This document shows positions 57,724-58,900 of a stretch of 64,000 bases of DNA, piece by piece. The position numbers were made by a program, and so were the translations under genes. The stretch's first letter is position 1; each line of letters begins with the position of its first letter. The DNA is taken from positions 103,372-167,371 of the forward strand of contig JAFTKW010000014.1 of NCBI GenBank assembly GCA_017453065.1, given 5' to 3'. Below the pieces are notes generated by a model that saw only the letters and a program-made list of their open reading frames with translations, ran no database searches and was not told the origin of the DNA. This DNA comes from Lachnospiraceae bacterium. GTDB lineage: Bacteria > Bacillota > Clostridia > Lachnospirales > Lachnospiraceae.

Positions 57724-57957
57724 CTATACACTCAACTCATACAACTCATCCGGACACAAATCCTGTCCATCAGGCCACACAACAGTATATCCATCTGTTG
57801 TAACTGTTTCAAAGTAACTCACATCTTTTAATTGTCCATACCATGAGCCTTTGATATACGGCTTTACATCAAAGATTTTTACCTCGCCATTATCAAAAGT
57901 AACCTCCAACAAATAGTCATCTTTTGGCTTTACAGCATTTGCAGTCGGTCTCAACAT
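57724..57957 (-). CDS. DUF2442 protein
   Basis: 77 residues. The sequence YLLEVTFDNGEVKIFDV, then KPYI and VVWPDGQDLCPDELYE, is a typical DUF2442 domain. Such proteins often sit beside DUF4160 proteins in toxin-antitoxin-like pairs, but the DUF4160 partner is absent here. It lies 20 bp after the ToxN-like gene and is probably co-transcribed. Its job in this island is unknown. Confidence 0.85.
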   Translation of the reverse strand: MLRPTANAVKPKDDYLLEVTFDNGEVKIFDVKPYIKGSWYGQLKDVSYFETVTTDGYTVVWPDGQDLCPDELYELSV

Positions 57958-57977: not shown

Positions 57978-58457
57978 TTAATATTCCCTGCATAGTCTTT
58001 CTAACAATACAAAATCATTTGTTCTTTTAGCAAGAGCCGTTGAATTTCCATTATGCATTTTATGGTCATACACTATACCTGCATTCTTTCTTATTCTTTT
58101 TCTTTGCCTATTAACCTCACGACTCTCTGCTTGTAATAAATATCTGTAATTCATATCCTTTTCTTTGTTTATATCAATAACAACAATCTGACTATCCGGA
58201 ACCGGTATCATATTATTAAGATTAATAACTGCATAATCTTTTATTTTGATAAAATCTACACTCTCTTTCATCATCTTATGTTTATCTTTATAAGAAGATA
58301 AAGGCGCAAAATATTTCATATTGTTGATTTCCAAAACAACCCCTATATATTTACGCTTCTTTTTGCTCTCCGTTGGTACAAAGATGTGTTTCTGGTAATT
58401 GCCAACATATTTTATGTATTCACTTTTAATTTCGTAAATTCTTATGTTTTCTCTCAT
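57978..58457 (-). CDS. ToxN/AbiQ-family endoribonuclease toxin (type III toxin-antitoxin)
   Basis: 159 residues, the usual length of ToxN/AbiQ toxins. The hallmarks are visible: YIGVVLEINNMKYFAPLSSY, then KDKHKMMKESVDFIKIK and AVINLNNMIPV. The APLSSYK segment (51-57) matches the catalytic loop, where Thr/Ser, Ser and Lys act in RNA cleavage. Toxins of this type cut mRNA and their own antitoxin RNA precursor, and cause phage abortive infection when released. The gene follows an antitoxin-like repeat RNA and a terminator, the classic toxIN order. The start has GAGAGA upstream. The family closest by host and context would be CptIN of Lachnospiraceae, which is an inference. Confidence 0.9.
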   Translation of the reverse strand: MRENIRIYEIKSEYIKYVGNYQKHIFVPTESKKKRKYIGVVLEINNMKYFAPLSSYKDKHKMMKESVDFIKIKDYAVINLNNMIPVPDSQIVVIDINKEKDMNYRYLLQAESREVNRQRKRIRKNAGIVYDHKMHNGNSTALAKRTNDFVLLERLCREY

Positions 58458-58490
58458 ATATCTCTCTTGATTTCCCTCGTCGCTATCAAC

Positions 58491-58522
58491 AAAAAAATGA
58501 CAGAGACCATATAGCCTCTGCC
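58491..58522 (-). terminator. Terminator between antitoxin RNA repeats and toxin gene
   Basis: Minus-strand stem GGCAGAG/CTCTGTC (58516-58522 with 58499-58505, one G-T pair) followed by ATTTTTTT (58491-58498). In type III systems this attenuator lets most transcripts stop after the RNA and a minority continue into the toxin gene. Confidence 0.85.
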
Positions 58523-58602
58523 ATCTGTTAACTCGCTCACTTTAGGGCTGTGCATCACCCACTAATAACTTGCTCATTTATAAGGCTGTGCATCACCTTC
58601 TA
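58523..58602 (-). ncRNA. Type III antitoxin RNA (ToxI-like) with two 37-nt repeats
   Basis: Two direct repeats, about 58529-58565 and 58566-58602, share the minus-strand core GGTGATGCACAGCC and a following GAGC-AGTTA segment, with a 37-bp period. They lie between a strong promoter and the terminator, directly before the toxin gene. Known antitoxin RNAs of this type are processed by the toxin into single pseudoknotted repeats that inhibit it. Two repeats are fewer than the 5.5 of ToxI from Pectobacterium and similar to the small arrays of AbiQ or CptIN systems. Confidence 0.85.
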
Positions 58603-58607
58603 CAGAT

Positions 58608-58637
58608 AGTATACTATTCAGGTGTAAAGTTAGTCAA
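58608..58637 (-). promoter_or_regulatory. Promoter of the type III toxin-antitoxin locus
   Basis: On the minus strand TTGACT (58632-58637), an 18-bp spacer and TATACT (58608-58613). Transcription would start near 58601, at the first base of the antitoxin repeats. The -35 overlaps the stop codon of the HTH gene. Confidence 0.75.
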
Positions 58638-58900
58638 TTCATTTTTTTCAATTCATCATAATAAGCCTTATACCGATATGCCGTCCTCCTACTAATCTCA
58701 CCCTGATTCACAATCTCCATAATAGTCATGCCACTCTCGTACTTAGCCACAAAAACATTGTAGGAAGCCATCCATGTATCATCATGCTTTTTACGTCCTG
58801 CAGGACTTTTTGCTTTGTAATACTCCAATTCTTTACGAAGATTTTCATTTTCCACTTCCAATTGAGCTATGTAATTTAATGCTTCTTCAAGAGTTTTCAT
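58634..58900 (-). CDS. Small coiled-coil protein with resolvase-like helix-turn-helix
   Basis: 88 residues. A leucine-zipper-like helix (ALNYIAQLEVENENLRKEL) is followed by AGRKKHDD and a helix-turn-helix ending ISRRTAYRYKAYYDEL, like the C-terminal DNA-binding part of serine recombinases, without the catalytic domain. It probably binds DNA as a dimer. GAGGAG precedes the start. It is the gene upstream of the toxin-antitoxin promoter and may belong to the same mobile cargo. Confidence 0.75.
   Translation of the reverse strand: MKTLEEALNYIAQLEVENENLRKELEYYKAKSPAGRKKHDDTWMASYNVFVAKYESGMTIMEIVNQGEISRRTAYRYKAYYDELKKMN

What the first reader, a model, noticed from the sequence alone, without database searches (positions are those of the whole stretch)
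57978..58637. Complete type III toxin-antitoxin locus with a minimal two-repeat antitoxin RNA
Seen directly: a promoter (TTGACT-18-TATACT), two 37-bp direct repeats beginning at the predicted start of transcription, a hairpin terminator with seven T's, then a 159-residue ToxN/AbiQ-type protein with the APLSSYK catalytic-loop region. Known of the family: toxIN, abiQ, cptIN and tenpIN loci have this exact order and act in phage defence. Inference: this is an intact defence system, and the repeat sequence GGTGATGCACAGCC does not match an antitoxin I can recall, so it may be a new specificity or subtype. Each repeat should yield one pseudoknotted RNA.
Basis: partly seen in the sequence, partly recalled or inferred. 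Interest (0 to 1): 0.87.

Follow-up and report, generated by a model that had tools for sequence, protein, structure and literature searches.

The report
Two-unit RNA antitoxin of a ToxN locus
This is a complete toxin-antitoxin gene pair of a known type (ToxIN), in which a small RNA made of two slightly different folded units most likely holds an RNA-cutting toxin in check; the type is known, but the antitoxin RNA is a new sequence group whose two units differ in a fixed way across relatives.

Summary
On the minus strand lie a promoter, two non-identical repeats (38 and 37 nt, sharing an exact 14-mer), a strong terminator and an intact 159-aa ToxN (Pfam ToxN_toxin 161 bits, cut-off 25). Closest solved proteins are ToxN and AbiQ; CptN is matched only at E 0.1. 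The genome's family includes named Lachnospiraceae MAGs. Ten distinct loci, window included, share the two units; the -10 box sits exactly 10 nt before the first GGTGATG in 10 of 10, and toxN is full length in six. The unit has the ToxI pseudoknot layout. Compensatory changes support it in a sister toxin clade, but in the window's own clade the pseudoknot stems hardly vary, so it is not proven there. It is a new member of the ToxIN family, with three differences: repeats 1 and 2 are 'position-locked' (94% alike between loci, 80% within a locus); no AAA at any of 20 unit ends, although characterised toxins cut A-rich RNA (some other ToxN groups share this lack); and Tandem Repeats Finder misses the array. 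Two repeats are not unusual: CptI of E. rectale also has two. In 397 genomes, 9 of 15 clear arrays of this or the sister type lack the toxin. Toxicity, rescue and phage defence are inferred, not tested.

The parts
58632..58637 (-). -35 box TTGACT
   Evidence: a -35/-10 pair found by relaxed pattern in 10 of 10 two-unit loci
58608..58613 (-). -10 box TATACT; last base 10 nt before the first GGTGATG, so transcription should start within about 3 nt of repeat 1
   Evidence: start site inferred
58562..58599 (-). antitoxin unit r1, 38 nt: AAGGU-GA-UGCACA-GCCUU-AUAAA-UGAGCA-AGUUAUUAG (S1 AAGGU/GCCUU, S2 UGCACA/UGAGCA with an A.A mismatch)
   Evidence: pseudoknot by homology to the sister clade
58525..58561 (-). 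antitoxin unit r2, 37 nt: U-GGGU-GA-UGCACA-GCCC-UAAAG-UGAGCG-AGUUAACAG (S1 GGGU/GCCC; compensatory relative to r1)
58491..58526 (-). intrinsic terminator between antitoxin and toxin (leakiness inferred): hairpin and seven T's
   Evidence: z -5.42; both-side compensatory changes in 3 of 12 stem pairs
57978..58457 (-). toxN, 159 aa, PF13958 ToxN_toxin / AbiQ-like endoribonuclease toxin
57724..57957 (-). DUF2442 gene (77 aa), starts 20 nt after toxN, perhaps co-transcribed, but not found beside toxN in the other loci searched; not part of the module
58634..58900 (-). 88-aa HTH_7 protein directly upstream, overlapping the -35 box; linked in 4 distinct clade loci only, so an associated gene, not a defining part

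Best explanation
A chromosomal type III (ToxIN-family) toxin-antitoxin module. One promoter makes a short RNA that starts at unit r1, runs through r2 and mostly stops at the hairpin; read-through makes the toxN mRNA. Each unit folds into an H-type pseudoknot. ToxN, an endoribonuclease, cuts its own antitoxin precursor at the UUANNAG junctions, stays bound to the products and is thereby inactive in a closed protein-RNA ring. When antitoxin supply fails, for instance when a phage shuts down host transcription, ToxN is freed, cuts RNA and stops growth. Shown here: anatomy, family membership of the toxin, conservation of the layout, terminator structure. Inferred: pseudoknot in this very locus (by homology), processing, ring, toxicity, rescue, trigger, phage defence.
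For: Toxin: PF13958 161.2 bits over residues 6-159, PADLOC AbiQ 120.8 bits; a profile of 28 relatives (window included) matches ToxN-Bt 7.3e-42, ToxN-Pa 7.6e-34, ToxN-Ec 1.4e-32, AbiQ 3.9e-28. Active-site residues named in PMC5086642 and PMC8860590 (passages) align as K33->R35, T52->S54, S53->S55, K55->K57 (alignment, numbering counted by me). PMC8860590 reports Arg at 33 in two E. coli clusters, and PMC5086642 reports that AbiQ uses Ser51 at the Thr position. Promoter, two units and terminator before toxN in 10 distinct loci, toxN full length in 6 of them. Array columns 5-20 and 43-59 are invariant in 10 of 10, while the five full-length clade toxins aligned are 60-80% identical to the window's. 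In the sister clade both-side changes fill 15 cells against 6.0 +/- 2.1 in shuffles (0/500), and 0 to 3 in six slid registers. One-way decay: in a 397-genome survey 9 of 15 clear array loci lack a full toxN beside them, 6 have one, and no full toxN of this clade was seen without its array (6 tree members of the window group and L035, found by toxin searches, all have one). This is expected if the array is the antidote; the survey itself searched for arrays and could not find toxins without them.
Against: No experiment. Tyr29 of ToxN-Pa aligns to E30. Single units fold no better than shuffles (z -0.11 and 0.11; the tool does not score pseudoknots). In the window's clade the pseudoknot stems give no covariation: 16 of 19 pairs never vary, two vary only between U-G and U-A, one departs by unpaired cells. 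S2 has an A.A mismatch; its helix score (10 and 9) is near the mean of swapped pairs (8.9). In the sister test two of five measures are weak: pairs with a change on both sides 5 against 3.2 (26/500 shuffles as high), and further pair types 9 against 11.3 (499/500 as high). Unit ends lack the A-rich cut site of characterised toxins. The structure prediction meant to check the fold could not be run.
Confidence: 0.9

Rival explanations
1. It is a ToxIN module by origin, but serves to stabilise a genomic or mobile segment (addiction) and has no useful anti-phage role in this host.
For: Flanking genes differ between loci (by eye); sister copies occur on contigs called viral; arrays often stand without the toxin. 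PMC5086642 (passages) reports plasmid maintenance by ToxIN-Pa and CptIN-Er, and no anti-phage activity shown for ToxIN-Bt and two CptIN systems.
Against: Does not contradict the molecular mechanism; some ToxIN systems (ToxIN-Pa, AbiQ) do abort phages (same review).
Confidence: 0.4
2. The module is a CptIN- or TenpIN-type system, since two repeats and a Lachnospiraceae-like host recall CptIN of Eubacterium rectale.
For: CptI-Er comes from two repeats (PMC4627078); related host group (recalled).
Against: The toxin profile matches ToxN/AbiQ at 1e-28 to 1e-42 and CptN only at 0.1; the unit is 37-38 nt, CptI 45 nt; unit layout as in ToxI. TenpN was not tested directly.
Confidence: 0.03
3. The toxin or array is decayed and the locus is a relic.
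For: Five other window-type array loci have a broken or almost deleted toxin (L036, L039, L040, L041, L087; the L039 frameshift could be an assembly error) and L042 is a bare fragment; no Tyr29 equivalent; the ribosome-binding site of toxN looks weaker than in relatives (by eye).
Against: The window ORF is full length and fits the 28-toxin alignment throughout; its two units and terminator score 143.2 bits, the highest of the 24 sources searched with the clade model (the window is one of the ten sequences in that model).
Confidence: 0.08
4. The repeats are a chance or unrelated element (attenuator, protein-binding site) upstream of an orphan toxin.
For: Tandem Repeats Finder does not see them; no Rfam family above chance.
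Against: Ten loci with the same two units in the same place; chance expectation 0.34; sister arrays covary as pseudoknots.
Confidence: 0.02

Closest known systems
ToxIN of Pectobacterium atrosepticum and E. coli (type III, ToxIN family)
   Same: toxin family; order promoter, repeats, terminator, toxN; unit 36 nt in P. atrosepticum (PMC5086642) against 37-38 nt; the E. coli plasmid repeat AGGTGATTTGCTACCTTTAAGTGCAGCTAGAAATTC has the same S1/L1 layout as r1; that this equals the P. atrosepticum repeat is recalled
   Different: two unlike units instead of four to six mostly similar ones; unit end UUANNAG instead of GAAAU; E30 where ToxN-Pa has Tyr29
AbiQ/antiQ of Lactococcus lactis plasmids
   Same: AbiQ profile match; Ser at the nucleophile position; GGTGA..CC unit (a ToxN/AbiQ-annotated locus of another L. 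lactis plasmid)
   Different: antiQ has 2.8 repeats of 35 nt (PMC5086642); the L. lactis locus read here has near-identical units with A-rich junctions
CptIN of Eubacterium rectale
   Same: two repeats
   Different: toxin matched only at E 0.1; 45-nt unit, heterotetramer (PMC4627078)
Sister ToxN clade of L020, L119-L123 (unnamed; found here)
   Same: toxins form one clade of 12 with the window group (support 99/94); UUA..AG-like unit ends in most of them (by eye)
   Different: three units per array, in most of them mutually unlike, with compensated stems

Membership tests
Type III toxin-antitoxin, ToxIN family | toxin belongs to ToxN/AbiQ protein family | tested here: met
Type III toxin-antitoxin, ToxIN family | tandem nucleotide repeats directly upstream | tested here: met
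   two units, kept in ten distinct loci; but not detected by Tandem Repeats Finder, the verification used in PMC8860590 (passage)
Type III toxin-antitoxin, ToxIN family | rho-independent terminator between repeats and toxin | tested here: met
Type III toxin-antitoxin, ToxIN family | promoter upstream of repeats | tested here: met
   sequence match only, relaxed pattern found in 10 of 10
Type III toxin-antitoxin, ToxIN family | each repeat folds into an H-type pseudoknot | tested here: inconclusive
   supported by covariation in the sister clade and by a swap test over 22 hand-parsed units of 14 loci (0 of 20000); no covariation in the window's clade
Type III toxin-antitoxin, ToxIN family | active-site residues K33, T52, S53, K55 (ToxN-Pa numbering) or accepted substitutes | tested here: met
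   R35, S54, S55, K57 by alignment; Tyr29 not kept
Type III toxin-antitoxin, ToxIN family | A-rich cleavage site at unit ends (a property of the characterised systems, not used to define the family) | tested here: not met
   AAA in 0 of 20 unit ends of the ten loci, 25 of 25 in 12 other loci, 6 of 13 in 11 further loci, 9 of 16 in the sister clade
Type III toxin-antitoxin, ToxIN family | toxin is an endoribonuclease and is neutralised by the repeat RNA | not testable with these tools
   needs expression experiments
CptIN family | CptN-type toxin | tested here: not met
   4rmo only at E 0.1, absent from the single-sequence search at E up to 1
CptIN family | about 45-nt unit | tested here: not met
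   38 and 37 nt
TenpIN family | TenpN-type toxin | not tested
   no TenpN reference was searched; only PF13958 matched in Pfam
Phage-defence (abortive infection) system | protects against phage | not testable with these tools
   inferred from family only

The most novel reading that the evidence does not exclude
A two-part type III antitoxin: one transcript that begins directly at the first unit yields two different, non-interchangeable pseudoknots, r1 and r2, which ToxN releases by cutting at a non-A-rich UUANNAG site and which alternate in an even-numbered (2:2) ring. Toxin number, unit number and ring size would then be fixed by the array, and the ring would carry defined positions, unlike the rings of identical ToxI units known so far. 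The sister clade with three units would be the three-part (3:3) version.
Probability: 0.15. Interest if true: 0.65.

Novelty: new member of a known kind. Interest (0 to 1): 0.36.

Why it matters
It adds a group of ToxIN loci, in a family that includes named Lachnospiraceae MAGs from animal guts, whose two-unit array Tandem Repeats Finder misses in the window, so such loci may be under-counted by the usual criteria. Because r1 and r2 differ in a fixed way, the group allows a direct test of whether repeat number and identity set the ring size of type III complexes. The lack of A-rich unit ends predicts a different RNase specificity. Arrays without a toxin (9 of 15 in the survey) raise the question whether cells keep them as protection against incoming ToxN.

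Tried and rejected
Rejected: chance repeats; CptIN membership; a three-component system with the upstream HTH gene (beside toxN in 4 distinct clade loci, not found in 7 others with enough flank, L035 having too little upstream DNA to tell; and beside a relative of the window toxin in only 2 of the 30 HTH loci fetched, of 35 places in 28 genomes); a toxN-DUF2442 operon as a unit (DUF2442 found in the window only among the 42 fetched loci); phage-borne decoys of the window-type repeat (one exact pattern in viral contigs, 3 hits, all in GC-rich DNA that looks unrelated). The sister-type pattern gave 7 viral contigs (L119/L124 and L118/L121 carry nearly the same array), all with a toxN match. Close toxin relatives in viral contigs by peptide pattern: none. 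Plasmid records: 167 with a match, all under 60% identity; phage records: 3, all under 60%. RNA-model hits with E between 1e-4 and 0.01 were dropped before the survey count. With R1: G013, G121, G128, G139, G327, G358, of which G121 was counted through R2. With R2: G255 and G147 (the L018 and L016 loci, which have toxN), G007 and a second place in G370 (look array-like, no toxN match), G254 and G139 (no array seen). Counting those four array-like rows would give 11 of 19 without toxN. Papers: searches listed no paper on unlike units or toxin-less type III arrays by title or abstract start. One search was poor, because 'ToxIN' also matches the word toxin. Only open-access papers are held and Blower 2012 is not held, so this is no claim of absence from print. 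Seen: PMC5086642 sections 17 and 23 and passages; PMC4627078 and PMC8860590 passages; the rest as listings.

Full report
What is there. The locus reads on the minus strand. TTGACT-18-TATACT at 58637..58608 is followed by two units that share GGTGATGCACAGCC exactly (58584-58597 and 58546-58559), then a hairpin with seven T's (58526-58491) and a 159-aa ORF at 58457..57978. Tandem Repeats Finder reports nothing there even at score 30. A simple self-period score gives 14.5 for the window. Of the 26 loci scored, 13 reach 37 to 175, and 10 of those 13 have units at least 88% alike within the array; the rest lie between 9 and 36.5.

The toxin. Pfam ToxN_toxin 161.2 bits over residues 6-159, PADLOC AbiQ 120.8 bits, no NCBIfam hit. 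Solved relatives by single sequence: ToxN-Bt 1.6e-11, ToxN-Ec, ToxN-Pa, AbiQ. With a profile of 28 relatives the four rise to between 3.9e-28 and 7.3e-42, while CptN reaches only 0.1. The residues that PMC5086642 and PMC8860590 name as the active site (passages) align as K33->R35, T52->S54, S53->S55, K55->K57 (alignment printed; numbering counted by me). Arg at 33 occurs in two E. coli clusters and Ser at the nucleophile position in AbiQ, according to those papers. Tyr29 aligns to Glu30 and is not kept. One match was found in the window's genome, which is 84.7% complete.

Relatives. PF13958 is found in 45 of 299 genomes of the family, 44 of them over the curated cut-off. The family includes Lachnospiraceae: genome G221 and the named record JAFTPP010000032.1 share a contig length of 638266 bases, and most titles say Lachnospiraceae. 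The genome-contig scan gave 11 loci, 70-81% identical over the best segment; L032 and L033 come from one MAG and carry the same array. A tree of 38 toxins puts the window with L032, L034, L037, L038 and L006 (98/93), next to a sister group of six (95/97), together 99/94 (the tool flags long branches, L119 in the sister group among them).

The array across relatives. Fifteen loci with window-type units were seen: the window, L006, L032 (=L033), L034, L036, L037, L038 (=L011), L039, L040 and L041 with two units; L035 (=L010) with one; L087 with one and a half; L077 with one; L090/L095 with two separate single ones. In the ten two-unit loci the -10 box ends exactly 10 nt before GGTGATG, so the transcript should begin at unit r1 with almost no leader. 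Columns 5-20 and 43-59 of the array are invariant in 10 of 10, although the five full-length clade toxins aligned are 60-80% identical to the window's. r1 and r2 are distinct and stay in place. Between loci r1-r1 is 94.0% (lowest 86.8) and r2-r2 94.1% (lowest 86.8); r1-r2 within one locus is 80.3% (highest 84.6). Common descent without gene conversion explains this without function; it shows only that the array is not being homogenised.

Structure. Both units read as S1-L1-S2-S1'-L2-S2'. S1 is AAGGU/GCCUU in r1 and GGGU/GCCC in r2, a compensatory difference. S2 is UGCACA/UGAGC(A or G), with an A.A mismatch. On the ten loci this gives 97.1% paired cells, but of the 19 pseudoknot pairs 16 never vary, two vary only between U-G and U-A, and one departs only by unpaired cells; both-side changes lie in the terminator only. 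MFE folding finds S1 and no pseudoknot, with energies no better than shuffles. In the sister clade (8 arrays, of which L108 and L109 have no toxN) the same layout gives 96.2% paired cells, 15 both-side changes against 6.0 +/- 2.1 in shuffles (0/500), and 0 to 3 in slid registers. Pairs with a both-side change are 5 against 3.2 (26/500), and the number of further pair types, 9, is below the shuffled mean of 11.3 (499/500 as high). A swap test over 22 hand-parsed units of 14 loci gave mean S2 score 10.9 own against 8.9 swapped (0 of 20000 permutations as high). The window's own units score 10 and 9, near the swapped mean; S1 was chosen by me in parsing, and a 23rd typed unit (L030) was left out. 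A covariance model from the ten loci finds the arrays of five plasmid or phage ToxIN loci in the right place and strand at E 5.6e-5 to 0.027; the best match outside such arrays in that search had E 0.26. The pseudoknot is therefore likely by homology and not shown in the locus itself.

Unit ends. PMC5086642 (passage) gives the cut sites of characterised toxins as AA/AU, A/AAAA and A/AAA. AAA occurs in the 12 nt before the next unit in 25 of 25 junctions of 12 other loci and in 6 of 13 of 11 further loci: one junction each in L014, L016, L018 and L024, both in L015 and one of two in L025 lack it, and in L017, L019, L021 and L027 the second element is only loosely like the first unit. It occurs in 9 of 16 of the sister clade, in four of them only at the far edge of the 12 nt. 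In the window's clade it occurs in 0 of 20, and UUANNAG stands in all 20 (ten are r1-r2 junctions, ten lead from r2 to the terminator; the 12-nt stretches there reach a few bases into the next element). L002, L008, L023, L026, L028, L029 and L030 were not scored. The A-poor end is thus a feature of this clade but not unique to it. A different cleavage specificity is inferred.

Arrays without toxin. Over 397 family genomes the window-type model R1 and the sister-type model R2 together give 15 array loci in 14 genomes at E 1e-4 or better. Six have a full toxN next to them: G000, G221, G206, G200 (with a tail), G198, G303. Nine do not: G212, where 14 codons of toxN remain; G370 twice; G207; G040; G043; G121, where the toxN start remains; and partial arrays in G339 and G160. 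About 1.5 kb on each side was examined where the contig allows; for G160 the contig ends 435 bases beyond the array. Weaker hits dropped before this count are listed under Tried and rejected. G212, G040 and G043 have no PF13958 match in the whole genome; G370 and G207 have one elsewhere. No full toxN of this clade was seen without an array; the toxN fragment L042 has none. This one-way loss is what an antidote and a poison would leave, though the array-based search cannot find toxins without arrays.

Verdict. A new member of the ToxIN family with a distinct, two-part antitoxin RNA. Toxicity, processing, ring formation and phage defence are inferred from characterised relatives.

Noticed in passing
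window 58634-58900 and loci L046-L075: The 88-aa HTH_7 gene upstream of toxIN occurs in 28 of 299 family genomes; of 30 such loci fetched only 2 have a relative of the window toxin. Elsewhere its downstream neighbours include Bro-N, ORF6N, DUF1016, RelB, Abi_2 and HicA genes (8 neighbours picked by eye were scanned, 6 had a Pfam match), as if it led a slot with exchangeable toxin-antitoxin or defence cargo.
   Followed up: partly
L108, L109, L127, L087, L095, L077, L130, L131: Type III antitoxin arrays without a full toxN beside them (9 of 15 array loci in the two-model survey), three of them in genomes without any PF13958 match. Possible protection against incoming ToxN, or relics.
   Followed up: partly
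L095/L090 (G370 contig 31): Two single-unit arrays 1.4 kb apart flank a Zeta_toxin-family gene and a small upstream ORF; another Zeta_toxin gene follows the single unit in L077, and a similar-looking one lies about 2.3 kb upstream of toxN in L032 (by eye).
   Followed up: partly
L020, L118-L124, L125, L128: Sister ToxIN loci, seven of them on contigs called viral, carry three units per array, in most of them mutually unlike, with compensated stems.
   Followed up: yes
L014, L016, L018, L024: Another ToxN group with three unlike units and no AAA at the one junction scored in each; the S2 strands seem to covary (UUGC/GCAA, UUCAC/GUGAA, UUCGC/GCGAA; by eye).
   Followed up: no
L035 348-971: Single-unit locus whose toxN reads on into a tail that resembles the C-terminal end of a tyrosine recombinase (GHSDITTTMNIY; motif recalled), suggesting insertion beside an integrase.
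   Followed up: no
L034, L036, L039 upstream of the array: The -35 region contains an inverted repeat (for example GTTGACTAGTATGTCAAC in L034) absent from the window; possible operator.
   Followed up: no
window 57724-57957: DUF2442 gene with an AGGAGG site upstream begins 20 nt after toxN; it was not found in the other fetched toxN loci.
   Followed up: partly
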